From assembly GCF_000756815.1 (NCBI RefSeq), contig NZ_CCVW01000001.1, forward strand, positions 1,044,001 through 1,108,000: a DNA stretch of 64,000 nt, written 5' to 3'. Shown piece after piece: positions 30,062 to 48,185 of this stretch (within the stretch, counting starts at the first letter, position 1; every line of letters begins with the position of its first letter). The notes below the pieces were generated by a model that saw only the letters and a program-made list of their open reading frames with translations, searched no databases and was not told the DNA's origin. The position numbers and the translations under genes are program-made. The DNA comes from Legionella massiliensis. GTDB lineage: Bacteria; Pseudomonadota; Gammaproteobacteria; Legionellales; Legionellaceae.

Positions 30062-30535
30062 TTATGATGCAGCCGGTGATAGCCCATTGGTTAAATTTAA
30101 AATTTGTTGATGTTGTTGTGCTAGATCCTTCCAAGGCCAGATGGGTTCGTGATGAAAAACTCGATTGCGTAGAAAGCGAATTCGATTAAGCTCTCGTGAT
30201 AAGAAAGCACGAGTTCTTTGCCTTTTAGGTAGATACTGAAAAGTTCCTTTGAGTAATTTTGGCCATAAAACCTGGCTATGCTCATAACGTATATCAAATA
30301 GAGAAGTCCAGAACCCGAAAGATAACTCTGCAACAATACGACCTGCTTCTATTGATTTGTTCCTCTTTCTTAAGTCATCTATTACCTGGCTTATTTGTTT
30401 TCTCTCTCTAGGGTGCAAAAATGGTAAATCAAACCAATGTTCTGTATCAAAATTATCACTAATTGCTTGGTGCAATGAGTTACGAAAACTGATTTCTAAA
30501 ATTTGTAATGCGGGATAAAGAGACTGGCTTAATTT
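30062..30535 (-). pseudogene. Abi-like protein (Abi_2 family), N-terminally truncated
   Basis: About 155 codons with the C-terminal half of Abi_2-type abortive-infection proteins: S-L-Y-P-A-L-Q-I-L-E-I-S-F-R-N, W-F-D-L-P-F-L, R-I-V-A-E-L-S-F-G-F-W-T-S-L-F and R-N-R-V-F-H-H-E-P-I. The R-N-R-x-x-H-H-E motif is the HEPN-like RNase signature. A TGA just before the conserved segment removes the normal start; a TTG at 30475 is a possible internal start. Upstream DNA has similar words in other frames. Originally phage defence cargo; probably inactive now. Confidence 0.75.
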
Positions 30536-30755
30536 AAGATTTCATGAGTATGTTACAAGAGCATTCATTTTACTTTGGTTACAAGTTACATGATTTAGAT
30601 AACCCTCTAAACGCTCTTGAGAAAAGATAATAGATCAAGGAAATCAGGATATAGCAATGAGCTATGTTTTAATGTATCTTCCATGTCAGCCAGTTGTTTA
30701 CCTAAGTTTATCGTAGGTAATGGCACAATATTTTAACCGGGCAGGGACAAAGCGC

Positions 30756-33700
30756 ATGAAGATTGTTCGGATGTATCTAGCGGTTTTATTATTTCTTTTT
30801 TTCCATGTATTACATGCGGCATCTGATCCTGTTAGATGGTCTTATTCCCCTGCCACGGGCTTTGCAGTAACTAACGTGGGTAAGAGTTCTGTAGTAACTT
30901 ATACCTTTACTAACATGCTTCCTTTTCCAGCTTTTATTGCGGTGGATGTTAATAGGCGAGACATTTTTTCTACTCAGGATTCTTGTACGGGTTTACTTAT
31001 ATTACCCCGCTCAAGTTGTACGGTTAGTATCACATTTACCCCTCAAGTTGCAGATCTCTATTATCTCCAAGTTAGTTATATCTATCACTATAATCGCATT
31101 AATTTACCTGCTATACCTGCAATTGCCGCTCCTATTGAGACATTTGTGGTTACTCCCGGCGGAGACAACAATGAATCAATCTTCCCAAATGCATCTCAAC
31201 TGGTTAAGTATAATTATCCTCAAAGTTTCTTTGTGGTTGCTAATCAAGGCCATACCTTGACTAAAATAGTAGAAGGCACCTGTCCTATAGGCTCCTGGGC
31301 GGGTGATGTCTATACTACAGGTCCTATTACCAGCTCTTGTTCAGTTTTTTTTCGTGCTTTTCTCGACGTCTTTACTGTTTCTGCTACTCATGACGATCAC
31401 GTAGCAGCTACACCTCCAGCACAGGATGTCTTTTATGGTGCAAACGCTCACATCAATGTGGTTCCAGATGCAGGCTATATTGCGCTGATTAAGAATGATA
31501 CTTGTGGTGGTAGTTTAGCTGGCTCTACTTATACCACAGGAAAAGTAACAGCTAATTGTGTAGTGAACTTTATTTCCAGTTTGGAAAGCATTGTGGCGAA
31601 AAGCGGTACACCGCAAACTACTGTGGTCACTAAGGCGTTTGGCCAACCTCTGGTTGTCCAAGTCACTGATAGTAATAATAATCCTGTGCCTAATCAGCTT
31701 GTAACCTTTACTGTCCCAAGTAGCGGAGCCAGCGCAGTTCTATCGGCAATGACGGGTACAACCGACAATAATGGGATTGTTTCCGTCACTGCTACGGCGA
31801 ATGGCACAGCAGGGAGTTATCAGATCACAGCTGCAATTGCAGGTATTTCTGCTCCAGCTGTCTTTAGCTTTACTAACAATCCAGGTGCGCCCGCTAGAAT
31901 TAAAGCGAAGGGTGGTACGCCGCAAGCTACGACTGTCACGCAGCCGTTTGGTAGTCCTTTAGTTGTCCTGGTCACTGATAGTTATGATAATCCTGTACCT
32001 AATCAGAGTGTCATCTTTACTCTCCCCAGCAGTGGCGCCAGTGCAACACTGTCATCACTCACAGCTACAACCGATAGTAGTGGCTATGCCTCAGTAACTG
32101 CGACAGCCAATACCACTGCAGGGTTTTATGTAGTATCAGCCAAAGTGAGCGGTTTCAATGTCAGTACCGCGGCTTATTTTAGCCTGACCAATACAGCAGG
32201 AACAGCGGCCGCTATTGCTGTAAAAAGTGGCTCTGGCCAGTCTACGACAGTGGGCACAGCCTTTCCTGATGCATTGATAGCGACGGTCACGGATACGTTT
32301 GGCAATCCGGTGCCCTTTGCGATAGTGAACTTTACAGCCCCAGGCAGTTTGGCTAGTGCAAAATTGTCATCAGACACCGTTATAACTGATATTAAGGGCC
32401 ATGCTTCTGTCACGGCGACAGCTAGTGATACACCAGGGGAGTATGCGGTAGTAGCCACAGTGAACGGAACCAGTGCTACGACTAATTTTGACCTGAGTAA
32501 TACAGCAGGCGCGCCGGCCAATATTACTGTGAACAGTGGTACTCCCCAGTCTGCGACGGTGGGCACACAATTTACTCAGCCTTTGGAAGCGAAGGTCACG
32601 GATGCTTTTGGTAATCCGGTGCCCTATGCGAAGGTGACCTTTACAGCGCCAGCTCCTAATAGTGGTGCTGGTGCAACGCTGTCATCGTCAACCATGGTGG
32701 GTACAATAACAACAATCACGGCTACAACCGATAGTAATGGCCTGGCTTCAGTCACGGCGACAGCCAATACAAAAGCAGGGAGTTATGGAGTATCAGCCAC
32801 AGTGGGTGGCGTCGGTGCCGCAGCTTATTTTACCCTGACCAATACAGCAGGGGCGCCAGCCGATATTGCTGTAAAAAGTGGTTTTGCCCAGTCTACGAAA
32901 GTGGACACGGCCTTTGCCCGGGCATTAGAAGTGAAGGTCACGGACGCTTATAATAATCCGGTGCCCAATGCGTCGGTGACCTTTGCGGCCCCTGGCGGTA
33001 TTAATGTTGCTAGTGCAATGCTGTTATCGTCATCAACCACGGGTACAACAATCACGGTTACAACCGGTAACGATGGCCTGGTTTCAGTCGCGGCAAAAGC
33101 CAATACTGTCGAAGGGGTTTATCAAGTAGAGGCCAAGGTAACTGCAACTAGTATCCAGACTTATTTTTACCTGAGCAATACAGCAAGCAAGGCGACTGCG
33201 ATTACTACGATCAGTGGCTCGCCCCAGTCTGCGACGGTGGGTACACCATTTGCTAATTCATTGGTAGCGAAGGTCACGGACACTTTTGGTAATCCGGTGC
33301 GCCATGCGATAGTGATCTTTACAGTTCCTGGTACTGGGGCTAGTGCAACACTGTCATCAACCACGGCTACTACCGATATTAATGGCTTAGCTTCAGTAAC
33401 TGCGGCAGCCAATAACATTGAAGGAGCTTATCAAGCAAAGGCTATAATGAGTGGAGTCAGTGCTGAGGCTCATTTTGCCCTGACCAATAATCCAGGGACG
33501 CCGACCATTATTACCGTGGTCAGTGGCTCTGGTCAATCTGCGACAGTGGGTACAGCCTTTACTCATCCATTGAAAGCGAAGGTCACGGATACGTTTGGTA
33601 ATGCGGTGCCCGGTGCGACGGTGACCTTTACAGCCCCGAGCGGTGGTGCTAGCGCAACATTATCATCGATGGGTACAACAGTCACAGCTACAACCGATAG

Positions 33701-36566
33701 CAGTGGCCATGTTTCGGTCACGGCGACAGCCAATCACACACCAGGGGGGTATGCAGTAACAGCCACGGTGAATGAATCCGGTGCTACGACTAATTTTGGC
33801 CTGAGCAATGCAGTAGGCACGCCGGCTGCCATCACCGTCAGCGGTGGTTCTAACCAAATGGTGGTGGTGGGCAACCCCTTTCCCCTGGATTTGGAAGCGA
33901 CAGTCACCGACACTTTTGGTAATGTGGTGCCTAATGTGACGGTGACCTTTACAGCCCCTAACGGTGGTGCTAGTGCAGCATTGTCACCAAACGGAGCTAC
34001 AACAACTACAGCTACGACCGATGCTGGTGGTGTGGCTTCAATCTCGGCAGTAGCCAATGATAAAGCAGGAGGCTACGGAATATCAGCCACAGTGGATGGC
34101 CTCAGTGCCTCACCTGGTTTTACTCTGACCAATAACGCAGGGGCGCCGGCCGATATTACTGTCAGCGGTGGTTTTGTCCAGTCTACGAAAGTGGGCACAG
34201 CCTTTGCTCATCCATTAAAAGCGAGGGTCACGGACTCTTTTGGTAATGCAGTGTCCGGTGTCACGGTGAGCTTTACAGCCCCTAGCGGTAGTAATGTTGC
34301 TACTGCAACGCTGACACCAACCGCACCCACAACCGATTCTGATGGTTACGCTTCAGTGGCGGCAACGGCTAATACCGTCGAAGGGATTTATCGAGTAGAA
34401 GCCAAAGTAACTGGTGTCAATACCGCGGCTTATTTTTACTTAGCCAACATAGCGGAGACGCCGAATACTATTACCATAGAAAGTGGCTCTGGCCAGTCTG
34501 CGACGGTGAATACAGCATTTGGTCAGCCATTGGTAGTAAAGGTCACGGACGCTTCGAGTAATCCGGTGCCTCTAGCGACAGTGAGCTTTACAATCCCTAG
34601 CAGTGGGGCCAGTGCCACGCTGTCGTCAATGTCAGTAAGAACCGGCCTTGATGGCAGGGCGTCAGTCACGGCAGTAGCCAATAGCACAGCCGGAGGACCT
34701 TATCCGGTGACGGCAGAGGTTGATTCATTGTCTACGCCGTTCCAATTAACCAATTTGCCGGTGATGTATCTAGTATCGGCTTATCCTTCTGATGGTAATG
34801 AATCTATAAGCCCTCCTACACAGAACGTAGTAGCAGGGGATACAACCAGTTTTACTGTTAACGCAAGCCCGGGCTACGACCTCAATCTAGGTGGTGTAAC
34901 AGGCAATTGTCCACAAGGTTCCTGGTCAACGACGTCAACAACGACGAATACCTGGACTTCAGATGCCATCGAGAGCGCTTGCTCAGTTTACTTTAGCGCA
35001 ACACAAATCCATTATCCGGTAACAGTATCGCTTACGGGTCTTCTCCCTCCCCCTCCTTCTGGTCCCGCTTACACGGTTACGGTAGAGAATAGTATTAATG
35101 GAAATGCGGGAGAGCAGTTGGTTTTTTCTGACAATATTTCACAAACATTTCAAACGGAATTAGTATATGGGGATACCTTCAGCGTCACTGTGACTCAGTC
35201 GCCAGTACCGGTAGAAAATTGTTTCATTACAAATGGGACAGGTTCGGGGACGGCTGGGACAAATCCTCCAGATCTTACTATTAAAGTTACGGCTGTGTGT
35301 ACCTTAGCTCTGCCTTACTATGAATCTTTTGGAAACTCAGTGACAGATTTACCTTGGACATCACCGGGGCCTTCTACTACCGAACCACCTAGCCCTAATA
35401 TTAATTCTGCCTGTTTAACTGCGTCAACAACGGAAGGAAGTACTAACGCTCTTGGTCGTTGTACAAGTTTAACTGGCAGCACATGTAATGCTAATTATGG
35501 ATGTGGTGGGTATACTGGATCTCCACCAACGCTACCAGATACATCAGGGCCAGTGCCACCATCACCACCAGGGCCACCAGGGAATGGTTCTTTGCGATTA
35601 ACTGATGCCGCTGGTAGTCAAGCAGGCGGTATTGTTTTTACATACCCATTCCCAACCACTACAAATGGAGTTTCTCCAATTCCAGGAATTGCAATCCAAT
35701 TTACAGCCTACTCTTATGGCGAAGTGGGATCACCGCTGGTGAATGGTGCGGACGGTTTCTCTTTCTTCTTACTTGATGGATCGGAGAACGGAGGACTACC
35801 TAGTACGCTCGGTCCGACTGGTGCAGGCTTAGGATATGGTAATGGTACAAATTTTCCAGGTGATGGAATTGAGTTTGGCTACGTTGGAATTGGCTTTGAC
35901 GAATTTGGTAACTTTGCGAAGGGAAATGTAGGCCAGCCGCCGACTCCTAATATGATTGCAATAAGAGGGCCAACTTCTGCTGATAATCAATTGATTACTA
36001 GCGTAGATGCGTCACTTCCATATATCTTATATTATAATAACTCCTCTGCGGACTCTACTTCTAGAAGCCAGATAGTTGATGTAAGTACCGGTCGCAATGT
36101 GTATAGAGTAGAAATCTCGTCCAGCAACCCCCCACTAGCTACAGTCTATCGTAATAATTCAGCGGTTATTACAGCATATAGTCTACCTACTGGTGCTTTG
36201 CCTGATGCAGTCTATCTTGGATTTGCAGCGAGCACAGGAGATGACTGGAATATTCATGAGATTACTGACCTGATAGTGGATAATTATGGTTACTTTCATA
36301 ACATACTTGTTACTCTAAGTGGCTTTAATGGTACGGGAGCGGTTACAGTGACGAATGCAATGCGAACCTATAACGTAGATACGTTGCAACTGAGCGCTAA
36401 TTCTAGTGCAAGTGTTGCTTTGCCTTCTGCTCTGCCAACGGGCTTTGCTTATAACGTAACTGTATCCACAACCTCGGGTCAAAACTGTACTGCTACTTCG
36501 TCTACTGGTACTTTGTCGGGAACAATGCCAAATGGAGATGTACAAATAAGTATCAATTGTAGTTGA
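30756..36566 (+). CDS. Giant secreted Ig-repeat protein with L-type-lectin-like domain
   Basis: 1936 aa from the ATG at 30756, chosen because it gives a clear signal peptide (M-K-I-V-R-M-Y-L-A-V-L-L-F-L-F-F-H-V-L-H-A-A). Layout: N-terminal domain with paired cysteines (30840-31130), two InlB/bacterial-repeat-like segments (to about 31580), ten tandem Big_1/invasin-like repeats of about 104 aa (31585-34760), another bacterial-repeat part, then a legume-lectin-like domain (about 35580-36290) with D-G-F-S-F-F-L-L-D-G and G-I-G-F-D-E-F-G-N-F. The fold is that of carbohydrate-binding adhesins. No LPXTG, autotransporter barrel or clear RTX export signal is visible, so the anchor is unknown. Role in attachment is inference. 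Confidence 0.85.
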   Translation: MKIVRMYLAVLLFLFFHVLHAASDPVRWSYSPATGFAVTNVGKSSVVTYTFTNMLPFPAFIAVDVNRRDIFSTQDSCTGLLILPRSSCTVSITFTPQVADLYYLQVSYIYHYNRINLPAIPAIAAPIETFVVTPGGDNNESIFPNASQLVKYNYPQSFFVVANQGHTLTKIVEGTCPIGSWAGDVYTTGPITSSCSVFFRAFLDVFTVSATHDDHVAATPPAQDVFYGANAHINVVPDAGYIALIKNDTCGGSLAGSTYTTGKVTANCVVNFISSLESIVAKSGTPQTTVVTKAFGQPLVVQVTDSNNNPVPNQLVTFTVPSSGASAVLSAMTGTTDNNGIVSVTATANGTAGSYQITAAIAGISAPAVFSFTNNPGAPARIKAKGGTPQATTVTQPFGSPLVVLVTDSYDNPVPNQSVIFTLPSSGASATLSSLTATTDSSGYASVTATANTTAGFYVVSAKVSGFNVSTAAYFSLTNTAGTAAAIAVKSGSGQSTTVGTAFPDALIATVTDTFGNPVPFAIVNFTAPGSLASAKLSSDTVITDIKGHASVTATASDTPGEYAVVATVNGTSATTNFDLSNTAGAPANITVNSGTPQSATVGTQFTQPLEAKVTDAFGNPVPYAKVTFTAPAPNSGAGATLSSSTMVGTITTITATTDSNGLASVTATANTKAGSYGVSATVGGVGAAAYFTLTNTAGAPADIAVKSGFAQSTKVDTAFARALEVKVTDAYNNPVPNASVTFAAPGGINVASAMLLSSSTTGTTITVTTGNDGLVSVAAKANTVEGVYQVEAKVTATSIQTYFYLSNTASKATAITTISGSPQSATVGTPFANSLVAKVTDTFGNPVRHAIVIFTVPGTGASATLSSTTATTDINGLASVTAAANNIEGAYQAKAIMSGVSAEAHFALTNNPGTPTIITVVSGSGQSATVGTAFTHPLKAKVTDTFGNAVPGATVTFTAPSGGASATLSSMGTTVTATTDSSGHVSVTATANHTPGGYAVTATVNESGATTNFGLSNAVGTPAAITVSGGSNQMVVVGNPFPLDLEATVTDTFGNVVPNVTVTFTAPNGGASAALSPNGATTTTATTDAGGVASISAVANDKAGGYGISATVDGLSASPGFTLTNNAGAPADITVSGGFVQSTKVGTAFAHPLKARVTDSFGNAVSGVTVSFTAPSGSNVATATLTPTAPTTDSDGYASVAATANTVEGIYRVEAKVTGVNTAAYFYLANIAETPNTITIESGSGQSATVNTAFGQPLVVKVTDASSNPVPLATVSFTIPSSGASATLSSMSVRTGLDGRASVTAVANSTAGGPYPVTAEVDSLSTPFQLTNLPVMYLVSAYPSDGNESISPPTQNVVAGDTTSFTVNASPGYDLNLGGVTGNCPQGSWSTTSTTTNTWTSDAIESACSVYFSATQIHYPVTVSLTGLLPPPPSGPAYTVTVENSINGNAGEQLVFSDNISQTFQTELVYGDTFSVTVTQSPVPVENCFITNGTGSGTAGTNPPDLTIKVTAVCTLALPYYESFGNSVTDLPWTSPGPSTTEPPSPNINSACLTASTTEGSTNALGRCTSLTGSTCNANYGCGGYTGSPPTLPDTSGPVPPSPPGPPGNGSLRLTDAAGSQAGGIVFTYPFPTTTNGVSPIPGIAIQFTAYSYGEVGSPLVNGADGFSFFLLDGSENGGLPSTLGPTGAGLGYGNGTNFPGDGIEFGYVGIGFDEFGNFAKGNVGQPPTPNMIAIRGPTSADNQLITSVDASLPYILYYNNSSADSTSRSQIVDVSTGRNVYRVEISSSNPPLATVYRNNSAVITAYSLPTGALPDAVYLGFAASTGDDWNIHEITDLIVDNYGYFHNILVTLSGFNGTGAVTVTNAMRTYNVDTLQLSANSSASVALPSALPTGFAYNVTVSTTSGQNCTATSSTGTLSGTMPNGDVQISINCS
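31585..34760 (+). repeat. Ten tandem Ig-like repeats of about 312 bp
   Basis: Each unit has S-G-x-x-Q-S-x-T-V-G-T-x-F, V-T-D-x-F-G-N-P-V-P, V-T-F-T-A-P, T-T-D-x-x-G-x-A-S-V-T-A and closes with L-T-N-T-A-G. DNA identity among the central units is high in short blocks such as gcgaaggtcacggat, so recombination between units could change repeat number. The block is visibly richer in G and C than its flanks. Confidence 0.85.
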
Positions 36567-38217: not shown

Positions 38218-39488
38218 CCCAAAAGAAGGGGCACTTTAATCAAGTTAGTATAGACTAACTCTTTGATTTTACGGTCAAAAGGAAGATTAAAATGCCCAAG
38301 AAAGATTGTATCCTAAATTTACCGGGATATTCTATTAAAAAGGTGAGTGGTGAGAGCCCTGTTTATATCGAAGTAAGTTATCGTTGTGTTGTTCGTTGCA
38401 TTCATTGTGGCAATAAAAAATTACGTATAAAGGATAGTTTTATAAGACGTGTCCGTCATGAGTCGATTGGCTTGGGTCGTAGCTATTTATGCATTAAGGC
38501 TCATAAATATTATTGTGGTGATTGTGGCCGTTATTTTAATCAGCGCTTTCCTGGAATAGGTAAACACCAAAGGGCGACCGAGAGCTTACGCAAACAAGTA
38601 TTTCATTATCACAGCAAAGGGGTAAGTCAAAAGGACTTGTCACGCGATTTAAAGCTTGGAAAATCGACAGTCGAACGTTGGTATCATTATGGTTATGAAC
38701 TTCGCTCCAAGAAGATTGCTACCCGCTCTTGTCCGAGAATACTAGGGCTTGATGAACATTCATTTAATAGGAAAGTGGGCTATGCCACCACGTTTTGTGA
38801 TTTAGCGAAACATAAAATATTTGATGTGGTTGAAGGGCGTTCAGAAAAGGATTTGGAGAGTTATTTAGCGACCTTAGAGGGAAAAGAAAAGGTACAGGTG
38901 GTTTGTATTGATTTAAGCTCAAGTTACCGCAAATTAATCAGGCGCTACTTTCCCAACGCCATGATAGTCGCTGACCGCTTTCATGTGATTCGTTTATTGA
39001 ACCAGATGAGCCTTCAGACTTATCATCAAATTGACCCAGACATGAAATATCAGCGAGGTCTTCTGGCCGCACTGAGAACCAATCCGAGTAATCTCAACCT
39101 AAAACGATTAAATAAAAGAGAACGTTATTTGCAGCAACAGCCTATCATTGCTGCTATCTATTATTTTAAACAGCGATTACATCGGCTACTCATGCGAAAA
39201 CATCGCACCGCAAAGCAGTGTTCGCGTTTAATACCTCTCTTTCTGAAACTGGTTTCCAGTCTGAAAGAAAGCCCTTTTGAGCCTCTTAAAACTCTGGGTA
39301 GAACATTATACCAATGGCGTGAAGAAGTGGTTAGAATGTGGCGGTTTACTAAAAACAACGGCATTACGGAAGGCTTCCATCGAAAGATGAAGCTAATTCA
39401 ACGGCGTGCTTACGGATTTAGAAATTTTGAAAACTATAGGTTAAGGGTTAAAGTTTTGTGTTCTTGATTCGTGCCCCCGGAAATGGGG
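38218..39488 (+). mobile_element. ISL3-family element inserted in an integrase gene
   Basis: The left tip ccccaaaagaaggggcac (38218) and the complement of the right tip at 39471-39488 share 12 of 18 bases, consistent with ISL3 imperfect terminal repeats. The transposase fills the inside. The right tip lies within an open frame of a tyrosine recombinase, whose front part is missing. Boundaries are approximate. Confidence 0.65.
38292..39467 (+). CDS. ISL3-family transposase
   Basis: 391 aa. N-terminal zinc finger with C-I-H-C and C-G-D-C, a helix-turn-helix (G-V-S-Q-K-D-L-S-R-D-L), and the DDE domain with G-L-D-E-H-S-F, A-D-R-F-H-V and G-I-T-E-G-F-H-R-K-M-K. The length is near that of compact ISL3 transposases. 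It appears intact. The last 50 codons are the source of the scar at 29640. Confidence 0.9.
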   Translation: MPKKDCILNLPGYSIKKVSGESPVYIEVSYRCVVRCIHCGNKKLRIKDSFIRRVRHESIGLGRSYLCIKAHKYYCGDCGRYFNQRFPGIGKHQRATESLRKQVFHYHSKGVSQKDLSRDLKLGKSTVERWYHYGYELRSKKIATRSCPRILGLDEHSFNRKVGYATTFCDLAKHKIFDVVEGRSEKDLESYLATLEGKEKVQVVCIDLSSSYRKLIRRYFPNAMIVADRFHVIRLLNQMSLQTYHQIDPDMKYQRGLLAALRTNPSNLNLKRLNKRERYLQQQPIIAAIYYFKQRLHRLLMRKHRTAKQCSRLIPLFLKLVSSLKESPFEPLKTLGRTLYQWREEVVRMWRFTKNNGITEGFHRKMKLIQRRAYGFRNFENYRLRVKVLCS

Positions 39489-39809
39489 ATGAGCCTAAAT
39501 AATACAGGCTGGAAAGAGGCTCGTAAGGAAGCTGGTTTGGAATTTGTGCGAGTACATGATTTAAAACATACCTTTGGCAGGCGATTGCGTTCTGTTGGGG
39601 TGAGTTTTGAAGATCGGCAAGATCTGTTAGGTCACCGCTCAGGTCGTATTACGACGCACTATTCATCAGCGGAACTGCAAAATCTGTATGAAGCTGGGAA
39701 TAAGGTTTGCGAAAAACAGAAAAGTGGTGTGGTACTCACTTTGCTCCGCAATCCAAATAATAGGAAAGAAAAGGTAGTTACACAAAACCATAAGGTCGTA
39801 AGTTTATGA
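39489..39809 (+). pseudogene. Tyrosine recombinase (phage integrase), N-terminally removed by ISL3
   Basis: The remaining C-terminal part reads L-N-N-T-G-W-K-E-A-R-K-E-A-G, then V-R-V-H-D-L-K-H-T-F-G-R-R-L (H-x-L-x-H/R motif with the catalytic His), L-L-G-H-R-S-G and T-T-H-Y-S-S-A-E, where H and the Tyr in H-Y-S complete the site. The first catalytic Arg and the arm-binding domain are lost. The stop codon marks the beginning of the island's direct repeat, 93 bp before the tRNA-Met 3' end, the normal place of an integrase next to its att site. Confidence 0.85.
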
Positions 39810-40079
39810 GATTGTGTTGTTTGTGCCCCACAAAATCCCCACAATGGGTTTTAGGGCTTTAAGATAATCAGTTGTATGTTATTGAATTTAAAGGACTTTG
39901 TTGGTGGGCCCACTAGGACTTGAACCTAGGACCAACGGATTATGAGTCATGCTTAACAATTTTAACCACTTGATTTTATTATAAATTTTGCCGCGGGTTT
40001 TTCCTACAAATGGCGTACTGTGTCGTACGATGTCGTACTCAAATACGACGATCTCCCGAAGGGGGATTTTAATCCAAGT
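39804..40079. repeat. Island direct repeat (right copy) with tRNA-Met 3' half
   Basis: Matches 29696-29970. The tRNA-Met 3' half occupies 39948-39902 on the minus strand; one extra base changes the acceptor end (gggcccacca instead of gggccacca). The right part holds tgtcgtacga, tgtcgtactc and aaatacgacg words, direct and inverted, as expected for recombinase arm or excisionase sites. It separates the older island on the left from the conjugative element on the right. Confidence 0.75.
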
Positions 40080-40122: not shown

Positions 40123-40959
40123 TTACATTCCATTTCTAGCTGATTTAATGTCAAAGAGATTGATCTGATTAATCTTATCCTTATGAATGATAATGGTTAG
40201 TTTTGCTGGATATTTAAATCTCATCTCGCTGATTCGAAATGTCCAGAGCATGATTTTTAAAAGATCTTCATCACTAATATTCTTGTGCCCTTTGATTCGG
40301 GTTATGCCCGAGCCAAAAATTGTAGTTGATACATTTTGTTGGGCATAAACTCTATTAACTTTGTCCCAGAAGGTAATCAGAAATTCTAAATACTCAGGCA
40401 TAGTTAGGTTTGCTTTGTTGTTACTATCAAATTTTGAGAATGCTGTTAGAAGGTAATCTTCATATACACATATTGTTCCAATATGATACTGAGTGGTTTT
40501 TCCAGATTTTCTGGGTACATTGGTTGCTAAAATCTCGTTTTCGTCAAATTCATAAGTTTGAATATATTCATCGAGTTCTATGGGGCTGCTGTTCAGATGT
40601 TTGTTGATAAAAATGCCATTAAGTGACTTTTGCGCAATCACTTTATCATCAACCAACGTATCAAAATATTCATTGAACGCAATTACTTTGAATCCTTGTT
40701 GATGAAAAATATCTCCAACTTTGATATTTACGGCACTCCCTTCGATGTTTAAGTTTATATCTTGAAGGCTGTTGGCTCGATACCAAATAGCAATGTAAAG
40801 GATAGGTAACAATATCAAAAATGCTATACCATATTTAATGCGGCATTCGGTAGGTATATCAACAAAAATAACAATTGTTGTAATGACCATAGATATAACA
40901 GATATCTTTTCTAAAAATTTTCTTAATACACGTGTATCAGTGATTTTAACCTTTGTCAT
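40123..40959 (-). CDS. thsA: Thoeris-type ThsA: two membrane helices plus macro-like domain
   Basis: 278 aa. Two hydrophobic helices at about 18-34 and 42-60 are followed by a soluble domain (75-275) with V-G-D-I-F, V-I-A-F-N-E-Y-F-D-T near 92-101, G-S-G-I-T-R-I-K-G and L-T-I-I-I-H-K-D-K-I-N-Q-I-N-L-F-D-I. This matches the DUF6430/macro-like sensor found in type II Thoeris ThsA, in which an ADP-ribose-type signal bound by the macro domain triggers membrane damage. The preceding gene, 22 bp upstream on the same strand, is a TIR protein, the required partner. The pair lies against the island att site, a common place for defence cargo. Signal identity is from known family work, not from this sequence. 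Confidence 0.75.
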   Translation of the reverse strand: MTKVKITDTRVLRKFLEKISVISMVITTIVIFVDIPTECRIKYGIAFLILLPILYIAIWYRANSLQDINLNIEGSAVNIKVGDIFHQQGFKVIAFNEYFDTLVDDKVIAQKSLNGIFINKHLNSSPIELDEYIQTYEFDENEILATNVPRKSGKTTQYHIGTICVYEDYLLTAFSKFDSNNKANLTMPEYLEFLITFWDKVNRVYAQQNVSTTIFGSGITRIKGHKNISDEDLLKIMLWTFRISEMRFKYPAKLTIIIHKDKINQINLFDIKSARNGM

Positions 40960-40981
40960 TTTTATTTCTAGGCCTTCCGAC

Positions 40982-41545
40982 TTAAGTTTTATAGATGTAG
41001 ATGTCCGCTTCTTTTTGGGTAGAAAACATGAAGCCCTGATTTGTTAGAGCTTGGCGAATTACTTCTTTGTCCATGGGAATATGGAGTGTGGGAACATTTT
41101 TTATTGAGTTCTTAAATATAGGTAATTTGTCCCATAAATTTTTTACGTCTTGTTTAAGATAACCATTAGTCAATAGGCTTGCTTTGGAATTGTAATCAGG
41201 ATAAACAACAATCACCGGTAGTTTTTGATCGTTTATCCCATAGTCGATTTCTTCTCTAAGTGCATTAGAGTTGGTCGTTGTTGAACTGAGAAATAAAATA
41301 ATGTTCTTTGATACTCGAAGCCGTTCTCTTAACCGTGGCTTCAATGTTAGTTCCCAACTACTACCGTCGCGGACATTGTATGTCTTGTCATGTGAGTCAA
41401 TGAAAGGGAAAGTAGCGTCTGAGCCCTTCCATAATCTTATGAGATTGTAGTAATAGAAGTCTTTTGTTGCATGCGCTCCTAATGAGCTGGTACTAAAAGG
41501 CTCAGCGACATAGAAGGCACAATAGTTTCCATTCCTAACTGACAT
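40982..41545 (-). CDS. thsB: Thoeris-type ThsB: TIR-like signal-producing protein
   Basis: 187 aa. The fold pattern is that of the DUF1863/ThsB TIR-like group: C-A-F-Y-V-A-E-P-F strand A, a K-D-F-Y-Y-Y-N-L-I-R-L-W helix, S-K-N-I-I-L-F-L-S-S strand, then S-N-A-L-R-E-E-I-D-Y-G with the likely catalytic Glu98 or Glu99, and P-V-I-V-V-Y-P strand. In Thoeris, ThsB senses phage and uses NAD+ to make a cyclic or conjugated ADPR signal. It is first in a two-gene leftward operon with the macro protein. aggtgag precedes the ATG. ArdA is encoded upstream on the same strand. Confidence 0.8.
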   Translation of the reverse strand: MSVRNGNYCAFYVAEPFSTSSLGAHATKDFYYYNLIRLWKGSDATFPFIDSHDKTYNVRDGSSWELTLKPRLRERLRVSKNIILFLSSTTTNSNALREEIDYGINDQKLPVIVVYPDYNSKASLLTNGYLKQDVKNLWDKLPIFKNSIKNVPTLHIPMDKEVIRQALTNQGFMFSTQKEADIYIYKT

Positions 41546-41696
41546 TCACTCACCTATTATTTATTAATCTGTTCCAATTTTTATTGGTTATTTTTATGAA
41601 AAATGATTGTCGGATAAATTACATCTTAATTCAATCAATAAATGACTACACTACCTTAATTTTTATCTTTTTTGTTGTATGTGGGTGTTGCTGTGT

Positions 41697-41715
41697 AAGC
41701 CCTCAAAGAGGGCTT
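41697..41715. terminator. Hairpin at the ardA stop
   Basis: aagccctc and gagggctt form a perfect 8-bp stem with a 3-base loop, overlapping the ardA stop codon. No T-run follows on the minus strand, so it may weaken rather than end transcription toward the Thoeris genes. Confidence 0.45.
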
Positions 41716-42220
41716 AATAGTTTGAAAAAACATGAGTCTGTCCATTATGCTCAACCGAACAATAATCATTGATAAAAAGATCCCGGGCAAAAGCCTCAAA
41801 ATCAAAATAGCAGATCAAACTATCCGGCATTTGATGGGCATAACAGTCATCAAATAATTGCCTGGCAAAATCAACCTCTGAATCATAGCAACCCTGGTAA
41901 TGATCCTCCAACATGGTTTGTGCATCATCCACTGAATAATCACAGAGAAGGGCTAAGCCTAGTTCCCCATGTTCTTGAATAAATGAGGCATACTCCACAA
42001 TGTTGCTTATTCCTTCATATTCATGGATTTTTATGCTGCCGAATCCCTCGTAATCATGTATGGCGTATTCCTCAGCCTTGGGTTCTGGGCTGTTATCTAG
42101 CATTTCCCAGATTTCTTTCATGATGTTATCTTCGCTTTGAGTAGCATCTATCCATACACCATGCAGGATGGCGTTGTTGTAAGAGGCTAAGCAGGCGACA
42201 TAAATTGAAGGGGTGTCCAT
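41714..42220 (-). CDS. ardA: Antirestriction protein ArdA
   Basis: 168 aa, very acidic, with the ArdA pattern: S-I-Y-V-A-C-L-A-S-Y-N at the start, H-G-V-W-I-D-A, H-D-Y-E-G-F, and repeated Asp/Glu-rich helices. ArdA is a DNA mimic that blocks type I restriction enzymes and protects incoming conjugative DNA. aaggag is 8 bases before the ATG. Lying between ssb and the Thoeris genes, it belongs to the leading region of the conjugative element. Confidence 0.9.
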   Translation of the reverse strand: MDTPSIYVACLASYNNAILHGVWIDATQSEDNIMKEIWEMLDNSPEPKAEEYAIHDYEGFGSIKIHEYEGISNIVEYASFIQEHGELGLALLCDYSVDDAQTMLEDHYQGCYDSEVDFARQLFDDCYAHQMPDSLICYFDFEAFARDLFINDYCSVEHNGQTHVFSNY

Positions 42221-42285: not shown

Positions 42286-42708
42286 CTAATACGGAATTTC
42301 TTCTGAATCCGGTTGCAATATTTCACGCATCTGAGCCATGTGTTCTTCTGCGGTTTTGTTACTGGATTCGTCAGCTGATTTTGATGAGTTGAGAAGCTGA
42401 ATGTGGCTAACAACAATGCTTAAGGCTTGGCGCGTTTTGCCCTCATTGTCAGTCCATTGATTGGAACGCAATTTACCTTCGAGGTAGACTTGCGAACCTT
42501 TCTTTAAATATTCAGCGATCTTCGTCAGCTTGCCAAAAAGCACCAGCTGATGCCATTCCACTCTGGTTTGCCATTCATCATTCTGTTTGAATGACTCATT
42601 AGTAGCCAAAGTAGCAGTGACAAAAGATTGTCCGTCTTTTCCGGCGATGCTTTTAGGATCAGCACCGAGATTACCTATTAATTGAACGCGATTTAAAGAT
42701 GCGGTCAT
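42286..42708 (-). CDS. ssb: Single-stranded DNA-binding protein of the element
   Basis: 140 aa. The OB fold shows L-N-R-V-Q-L-I-G-N-L-G-A-D-P, W-H-Q-L-V-L-F-G-K-L and G-S-Q-V-Y-L-E-G-K-L. The C-terminal linker is shorter than that of chromosomal SSB and the acidic tip is S-E-E-I-P-Y in place of D-D-D-I-P-F. It coats transferred single strands during conjugation. aggag precedes the ATG. Confidence 0.92.
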   Translation of the reverse strand: MTASLNRVQLIGNLGADPKSIAGKDGQSFVTATLATNESFKQNDEWQTRVEWHQLVLFGKLTKIAEYLKKGSQVYLEGKLRSNQWTDNEGKTRQALSIVVSHIQLLNSSKSADESSNKTAEEHMAQMREILQPDSEEIPY

Positions 42709-47358: not shown

Positions 47359-47435
47359 TTGTAAAATTTAAGCTTGTCGTTTTATAGGTATTATAGAAGT
47401 GTCTATAATTGAAAGAAAAACAGGAGTATTACCTA

Positions 47436-48185
47436 ATGATAGAGGAAAAATATCATGATTTTAAATATGGGGCAGTATTTAAATTTGCTCATGATATACA
47501 AGAGCAAATAATAAATCAGAATTTGGATTGCATAATAGATTTAGCATCTGATCTTGAAAAACAAATTACGAAGCCGCAAAAGAATACAATTTTACATGAT
47601 GTTATTGAATATCATATTAATGATTATTTTAGCGTTGTTTATTTTAACCCATATTTTGATGTTCACAGCATAGATGATATTGAGATTTTTGAGGACAATG
47701 AGGTGATAAATCTTTTCGAAGAATATCAAATAAAATATTTGACTATTAAACAGTATTTGAAAAAGCATCCCGGAGATTATTTCACGTATGGCTATGAATA
47801 TTTGCGAGGAATATTAGAAGACAAATTATCGCCGATTTTAAAAGTCGAAGTTTTTAATTTATTATTTGATGATCGAAACCTGATGAAAGAATTCAATATT
47901 TTAATTGCTGGTGAATTGGATGAAAGAGTTACAAGATGCAAATCTTGGCCTAAATGGTTAGTGCGGGCTTTATATTGTCGTGAAAAGGGGCTTTGTGCCT
48001 TATGCCAAAAAGACTTAAGTCATTTATTACACACAAAAAATAAACCTGCTATTGATCATATAGTGCCTATAGCTTTAAAAGGTGTGAATGACCCAACAAA
48101 CCTCCAAATGTTATGTGATAAATGTAATGGAAACAAAAGTGATATTCATATCACTACTTCTAATTACAGGCCACTCTATTGGTAA
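47436..48185 (+). CDS. HNH endonuclease domain protein
   Basis: 249 aa from the ATG at 47436; caggag is about 9 bases upstream. Residues 1-170 are acidic and of unknown fold. The C-terminal HNH module shows C-A-L-C, A-I-D-H-I-V-P-I (catalytic His), N-L-Q-M-L-C and K-C-N-G-N-K, with four Cys for structural zinc. Such fused HNH proteins act in phage or plasmid exclusion. It is rightward and converges with traD, 4 bp from it. Defence function is inference. Confidence 0.8.
   Translation: MIEEKYHDFKYGAVFKFAHDIQEQIINQNLDCIIDLASDLEKQITKPQKNTILHDVIEYHINDYFSVVYFNPYFDVHSIDDIEIFEDNEVINLFEEYQIKYLTIKQYLKKHPGDYFTYGYEYLRGILEDKLSPILKVEVFNLLFDDRNLMKEFNILIAGELDERVTRCKSWPKWLVRALYCREKGLCALCQKDLSHLLHTKNKPAIDHIVPIALKGVNDPTNLQMLCDKCNGNKSDIHITTSNYRPLYW

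What the first reader, a model, noticed from the sequence alone, without database searches (positions are those of the whole stretch)
40123..41545. Type II Thoeris-like defence pair at the island border
A TIR-like gene and a gene with two membrane helices plus a macro-like domain lie 22 bp apart on one strand, about 40 bp from the tRNA-Met direct repeat. The domains are seen in sequence; that this combination is type II Thoeris, with an ADPR-type signal opening a membrane effector, is established for the family. Placement behind ardA suggests the element carries both counter-restriction and anti-phage tools. The effector domain looks divergent enough to be worth testing.
Basis: partly seen in the sequence, partly recalled or inferred. 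Interest (0 to 1): 0.75.

Follow-up and report, generated by a model that had tools for sequence, protein, structure and literature searches.

The report
Type II Thoeris pair on mobile element
Two neighbouring genes at one end of a mobile DNA element look like an ordinary copy of a known bacterial anti-virus alarm, in which one protein makes a small signal molecule and the other disrupts the membrane when it binds that signal.

Summary
On the minus strand, 40982-41545 encodes a 187-aa ThsB (TIR) and, 22 bp downstream, 40123-40959 a 278-aa ThsA with two N-terminal hydrophobic helices and a macro domain. Both match curated Thoeris families strongly (PADLOC ThsA 3e-126, ThsB 3e-76; Pfam PF20016, PF08937). 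Solved ThsA macro domains are 68-69% identical, a solved TIR protein 60%. The ligand-binding residues reported for E. coli ThsA sit at the same numbers here. ThsB neighbours ThsA in 74 of 80 homologous genome loci. This is a conventional type II (TM-macro) Thoeris, not a divergent one.

Context correction: the pair is terminal cargo of a ~55-kb conjugative element running from the repeat at 39.9 kb to an intact tRNA-Met outside the window, not of the 10-kb segment between the two in-window repeats. In nine related copies (eight genomes) the backbone is conserved up to ardA, then stops, and other cargo follows; one carries a CBASS-like cyclase/membrane-effector pair beside the same tRNA-Met piece. 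The slot may be a defence-exchange site. Activity was not tested.

The parts
40982..41545 (-). thsB: TIR-domain protein, 187 aa; candidate active-site Tyr8 and catalytic Glu99
   Evidence: PF08937 E 3.6e-26; PADLOC ThsB1 2.7e-76; 3hyn E 2.6e-74, 9uv0 1.2e-71, 8v6t 8.1e-08; model pLDDT 85.8, Foldseek 3hyn TM 0.91/0.92
40123..40959 (-). thsA: two N-terminal membrane helices plus C-terminal ThsA macro domain, 278 aa
   Evidence: PF20016 E 2.3e-64 over residues 77-259; PADLOC ThsA1 3.1e-126 over 1-278; 8v6s E 2.6e-99, 8v6q 3e-96; model pLDDT 80.4, Foldseek 8v6q TM 0.71/0.91
39902..40069 (.). attachment-site repeat holding the 3' end of a tRNA-Met gene; inferred left end of the 55-kb element
   Evidence: a 42-nt core is also exact at C1:1139229-1139270 inside an intact tRNA-Met
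41714..42220 (-). ardA antirestriction gene, conserved element backbone next to the cargo slot
   Evidence: PF07275 E 2.8e-41; continuous homology with 9 related element copies stops at 41696-41710
42286..42708 (-). single-strand binding protein gene, element backbone
   Evidence: PF00436 E 4.4e-28; TIGR00621 above its cut-off
39471..39809 (+). C-terminal piece of a tyrosine integrase left of the attachment repeat, next to an ISL3 transposase gene (38292-39467)
   Evidence: PF00589 E 2.7e-08, PF01610 E 1.8e-60; window 39545-39948 is 72.5% identical to the 3' end and flank of the element's own integrase gene

Best explanation
A complete type II (TM-macro) Thoeris anti-phage system, carried as terminal cargo of an integrative conjugative element. 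Inferred mechanism, by family: phage infection is sensed by or through the TIR protein ThsB; ThsB uses NAD+ to make an ADP-ribose-type signal (histidine-ADPR in the characterised type II system); the signal binds the macro domain of ThsA; ThsA oligomerises in the inner membrane through its two N-terminal helices and perturbs it, stopping the infected cell before phage release. Shown here: genes, domains, predicted folds, conserved ligand-site residues, gene neighbourhood and element context. Not shown here: activity, the identity of the signal, the phage trigger.
For: Family models. The closest solved structures are ThsA macro domains and ThsB/TIR proteins; the models recover them first. Window ThsA carries D83, N96, D100, L113, N114, R150, K154, S175, S217, G218, T220, H259 and K262, the residues that Shi et al. 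2024 (PMC11204291, Results section read) report in the EcThsA ADPR site or supporting its loop; across 77 of 80 homologous loci N96, D100, N114, G218 and T220 are invariant. ThsB Tyr8 and Glu99 are invariant in 53 of 53 ThsB with at least 40% identity and 140 aligned residues, out of 74 ThsB found. ThsB neighbours ThsA in 74 of 80 genome loci and 10 of 11 viral-contig loci; thsB comes first, as here, in 56 of the 74. His-ADPR, oligomerisation and membrane damage by type II ThsA: passages of PMC12847820 and PMC12948488 citing Sabonis 2025; Sabonis 2025 itself was not seen.
Against: No test of expression, phage protection, NADase activity or signal. Two of the six dimer-dimer interface residues mutated in EcThsA differ here (position 182 is K, 250 is Y). 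Model confidence falls below 50 at ThsA 100-105 and 276-278 and at ThsB 14-25 and 56-60. EcThsB2, the solved relative with the active-site tyrosine, showed no NADase activity in vitro, so the chemistry of tyrosine-type ThsB is open in that paper. Promoter-like sites are no more than chance (5 found, 8.8 expected). NCBIfam has no match to either protein. The 80 loci were found with two ThsA peptide patterns and are the closer homologues, so the neighbour count says nothing on distant ThsA.
Confidence: 0.95

Rival explanations
1. The pair is a genuine Thoeris by descent but is silent or decayed in this host.
For: No promoter signal above chance; ThsA occurs in only 3 of 143 genomes searched in the family, own genome included, the other two at 26-30% identity, so it was probably acquired and could be unused.
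Against: Both frames are intact and near full length against their models; ligand-site residues and the candidate catalytic residues are kept.
Confidence: 0.12
2. The genes mainly serve the conjugative element, for example by excluding competing phages or elements, rather than the cell.
For: They lie inside the element at its end, beside ardA; the slot holds different cargo in 9 related copies; homologues are found on 82 plasmid records, 61 of them predicted conjugative.
Against: Thoeris systems are described as protecting bacteria from phages (abstract of PMC11204291). This rival concerns who benefits rather than mechanism.
Confidence: 0.25
3. A different TIR/macro two-gene system, such as a macro-domain ADP-ribose hydrolase with a TIR partner, only resembling Thoeris.
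For: TIR and macro domains occur in other NAD-related systems (general knowledge).
Against: ThsA-specific Pfam and PADLOC models match; generic macro domains are far weaker in the fold search, E 1.3e-05 at best against 1.7e-31. EcThsA had no deacetylase or glycohydrolase activity.
Confidence: 0.02

Closest known systems
Thoeris of Escherichia coli CFT073 (EcThsA, EcThsB1, EcThsB2; PDB 8v6q, 8v6r, 8v6t; PMC11204291)
   Same: TM-macro ThsA with the same residue numbering, 68-69% identity over the solved macro domain, same ligand-site residues
   Different: One ThsB here instead of two; this ThsB is 25% identical to EcThsB2 in the structural match
ThsA of Pseudomonas corrugata (PcThsA, PDB 8v6s with imidazole adenine dinucleotide)
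   Same: Best sequence match in the PDB, E 2.6e-99; 69% identity
   Different: No functional difference seen; compared over the macro domain only
ThsA macro domain of PDB 8r66 ('in complex with signaling molecule', released 2025; that it is the Bacillus system with His-ADPR is recalled)
   Same: Same family and fold, E 1.1e-46, 42% identity
   Different: More distant than the E. coli and Pseudomonas ThsA
PDB 3hyn (Eubacterium rectale putative signal transduction protein) and 9uv0 (putative cADPR synthase ThsB)
   Same: 60% identity to 3hyn over the whole ThsB, TM 0.91/0.92; 9uv0 E 1.2e-71
   Different: 3hyn's title names no tested function

Membership tests
Thoeris type II (TM-macro ThsA plus ThsB) | ThsA with N-terminal transmembrane helices | tested here: met
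   Two hydrophobic stretches within residues 14-39 and 39-63; helices 9-32 and 37-63 in the model. Membrane insertion itself not tested
Thoeris type II (TM-macro ThsA plus ThsB) | ThsA-type macro domain with the ADPR-binding cleft | tested here: met
   PF20016 E 2.3e-64; Foldseek 8v6q TM by target 0.91; D83, L113, N114, S175, S217, G218, T220, H259, K262 all present (residue list)
Thoeris type II (TM-macro ThsA plus ThsB) | Adjacent ThsB with TIR fold and catalytic glutamate | tested here: met
   PF08937 E 3.6e-26; Foldseek 3hyn TM 0.91/0.92; Glu99 aligns with a glutamate of EcThsB2 taken to be its E89, and is invariant in 53 of 53
Thoeris type II (TM-macro ThsA plus ThsB) | The two genes are conserved neighbours | tested here: met
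   74 of 80 genome loci, 10 of 11 viral-contig loci. Misses: L053, L062, L069, L076, L086, L087 and viral L091; in L062, L069, L076, L086, L091 the contig ends at or within 120 bp of thsA, in L053 243 bp after it; L087 holds a partial ThsA
ThsB subfamilies with active-site tyrosine (Shi et al. 2024) | Tyrosine beside the catalytic glutamate, found only with TM-macro ThsA | tested here: inconclusive
   Tyr8 lies in the matching N-terminal strand by alignment with homologues and is invariant in 53 of 53; EcThsB2 itself was not in that alignment and the Tyr-Glu distance was not measured
Thoeris type II (TM-macro ThsA plus ThsB) | ThsB makes His-ADPR or another ADPR-type signal on infection | not testable with these tools
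   Needs biochemistry
Thoeris type II (TM-macro ThsA plus ThsB) | Protects cells against phage by abortive infection | not testable with these tools
   Needs phage challenge
Thoeris type I (SIR2-SLOG ThsA) | SIR2 and SLOG domains in ThsA | tested here: not met
   Only ThsA_Macro passes its Pfam cut-off

The most novel reading that the evidence does not exclude
The slot between ardA and the attachment site is an exchange point for signalling-type, membrane-targeting abortive defences on this group of conjugative elements: a TIR/TM-macro Thoeris pair here, and a CBASS-like cyclase/one-helix membrane-effector pair (L124) in the same slot beside the same tRNA-Met piece, while the backbone up to ardA stays nearly constant.
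Probability: 0.45. Interest if true: 0.4.

Novelty: new member of a known kind. Interest (0 to 1): 0.22.

Why it matters
It adds one intact, conventional type II Thoeris to a conjugative element in a bacterial family where ThsA looks rare (3 of 143 genomes), and shows that the element end next to ardA takes different cargo in relatives, in one case another nucleotide-signal defence. That makes the slot a simple place to look for further defence genes. The Thoeris pair alone would not surprise a specialist.

Tried and rejected
Rejected: that the effector is divergent (68-69% identity to two solved ThsA); that the two in-window repeats bound the Thoeris element (a third copy in an intact tRNA-Met lies outside the window); type I Thoeris (no SIR2 or SLOG match).

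Led nowhere: NCBIfam gave no match for either Thoeris protein; promoter scan no better than shuffles; the phage records held one relative, 38% identical over 82% of ThsA; searches for Legionella with 'integrative conjugative element' and 'tRNA-Met', and with 'anti-phage defense systems' and 'DefenseFinder', gave 0 papers. 'Thoeris' with 'Legionella' gave 4 papers, 3 listed, judged from the listing only as not about a Legionella Thoeris. No tool names the host; Legionella or a close relative is inferred from a Legionella adelaidensis record matching transfer genes at 73.5% and 4 Legionella records among 81 hits to the flank.

Not taken further: ThsA and ThsB trees; chemistry of the tyrosine-type active site; the HerA/methylase/helicase cassette elsewhere on the element. 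Rows dropped: of 22 match rows, the own genome and 12 shorter ones (nine near-full-length used), ThsA statistics used 77 of 80 loci (under 200 aligned residues dropped) and ThsB statistics 53 of 74 (under 40% identity or 140 aligned residues dropped). Of 52 slot ORFs listed, 30 were given to PADLOC and 13 to Pfam.

Full report
What is there. On the minus strand two ORFs lie 22 bp apart, 41545-40982 (187 aa) and 40959-40123 (278 aa). The first is a TIR protein of the ThsB family: PF08937 E 3.6e-26, PADLOC ThsB1 2.7e-76. The second is ThsA: PF20016 E 2.3e-64 over residues 77-259, PADLOC ThsA1 3.1e-126 over 1-278. One match to each was found in the 4.38-Mb genome.

Structure relatives. By sequence the PDB entries nearest ThsA are 8v6s (E 2.6e-99), 8v6q (3e-96), 9uuz (7.2e-48) and 8r66 (1.1e-46), all named ThsA; nearest ThsB are 3hyn (2.6e-74), 9uv0 (1.2e-71) and 8v6t (8.1e-08). 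AlphaFold2 models from alignments of 39 and 38 sequences reached mean pLDDT 80.4 and 85.8. Foldseek against the PDB ranks EcThsA first for ThsA (E 1.7e-31, TM by target 0.91, 69% identity), with generic macro domains from E 1.3e-05, and for ThsB 3hyn (E 2.0e-24, TM 0.91/0.92, 60% identity), then EcThsB2 (E 1.2e-05).

Residues. Shi et al. 2024 (PMC11204291; abstract and Results section read) place ADPR in EcThsA among D83, L113, N114, S175, S217, G218, T220, H259 and K262, with D100, N96, R150 and K154 holding a loop. The window ThsA has every one at the same number. Among 77 of 80 homologous loci N96, D100, N114, G218, T220 and R221 are invariant. Of six interface residues mutated in that study, Q207, I219, R221 and K249 are kept; positions 182 and 250 are K and Y here. 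In ThsB, Glu99 aligns with a glutamate of EcThsB2 and Tyr8 with the N-terminal tyrosine of homologues of that type; both are invariant in 53 of 53 ThsB with at least 40% identity.

Are the two neighbours elsewhere? One scan of the genome collection with a ThsA alignment returned 80 loci (82 relatives, 80 kept), by their record titles from several phyla. A ThsB profile built from four sequences, the window's included, finds ThsB in 74 of the 80, and in 10 of 11 viral-contig loci (viral loci). In the 74, thsB is first in 56, thsA first in 17 and one pair is on opposite strands (start codons chosen by rule). Of the seven misses five have the contig end at or within 120 bp of thsA, L053 has 243 bp after it, and L087 is a partial ThsA. 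The scan favours close homologues (51% identity or more), so distant ThsA are not covered.

Element context. A 42-nt piece of the 3' end of tRNA-Met occurs three times in the genome: at window 39903 (exact), at C1:1139229 (exact) and at window 29794 (3 mismatches). Only the copy at C1:1139229 lies in an intact tRNA-Met, C1:1139228-1139304. An integrase gene (375 aa, PF00589) ends about 90 bp from it. I infer that the element carrying Thoeris runs from about 39.9 kb to that tRNA-Met, about 55 kb. Conjugation genes are indicated at least at 50.4-55.5 kb, where a Legionella adelaidensis record annotated with integrating conjugative element proteins matches at 73.5%. Thoeris sits at the end opposite the integrase. 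The 10-kb stretch between the two in-window repeats is a neighbouring segment with a C-terminal integrase piece beside an ISL3 transposase gene.

The slot. In 13 of 22 genomes of the genus, own included, ssb-ardA sequence or part of it is found. I took the nine near-full-length matches outside the own genome, from eight genomes. In 9 of 9 the continuous homology with the window stops at 41696-41710, between ardA and thsB, and a tRNA gene (Pro in 4, Thr in 2) or the same tRNA-Met piece (L117, L118, L124) follows after about 2.6-9.3 kb of other genes. That these tRNA genes are the element ends was not tested, and L122 and L123 show the same ORF layout, so they may not be independent. Neither PF20016 nor PF08937 was found in these eight genomes (the positive control for PF20016 is the own genome).

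In L124 the gene pair nearest the tRNA-Met piece is a CBASS-like cyclase (PADLOC 2.4e-80) and a one-helix effector (1.5e-79), with an Mrr-type restriction domain also in the slot. L119, L120 and L121 hold proteins with partial matches to MkoA (E about 1e-40 over part of the profile), and two L117 proteins match mad3 weakly, one of them an ABC transporter by Pfam. Others hold a GHKL-type ATPase, a translesion polymerase, an EamA transporter and unassigned genes. So the slot is not defence-only; 30 of 52 slot ORFs were scanned with PADLOC. G+C of thsBA is 34.6%, against 42.2% for ssb-ardA and 43.3% for 48-64 kb, but 35.9% for the first 24 kb of the window: the pair differs from the element backbone, not from the host-like DNA.

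Mechanism. Shown here: genes, domains, folds, conserved sites, neighbourhood and context. [quoted passage not shown] type II ThsB makes His-ADPR, which drives ThsA oligomerisation and membrane damage (passages in PMC12847820 and PMC12948488, citing Sabonis 2025, not seen). Inferred: that this pair does the same.

Verdict. It is a new member of a known kind, not divergent. The one thing of wider interest is the cargo slot.

Noticed in passing
   Followed up: partly
L102:2423-16950 and L103:268-9174 (own genome, beyond the window end, same element): Large cassette: type I methylase and specificity subunits, HerA-like ATPase, Ser/Thr kinase, a 1435-aa protein with no Pfam or PADLOC match at the thresholds used, PD-(D/E)XK and UvrD-like helicase proteins, a Schlafen AlbA_2 protein. 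No single named system was apparent from the PADLOC matches; may be a defence cassette worth its own look.
   Followed up: partly
30720-36566: 1948-aa protein with many repeats of roughly 105 residues (300-nt DNA repeat families), Ig-like by appearance, in the 10-kb segment between the two in-window tRNA-Met pieces.
   Followed up: no
38292-39809: ISL3-family transposase gene directly beside a C-terminal integrase piece, left of the attachment repeat.
   Followed up: no
47409-48185: Protein, HNH-like by appearance, with a weak match to PtuB (E 4.4e-07, residues 185-251); no partner was looked for.
   Followed up: no
30062-30475: 137-aa ORF with a match to PD-T4-5 (E 3.3e-12).
   Followed up: no
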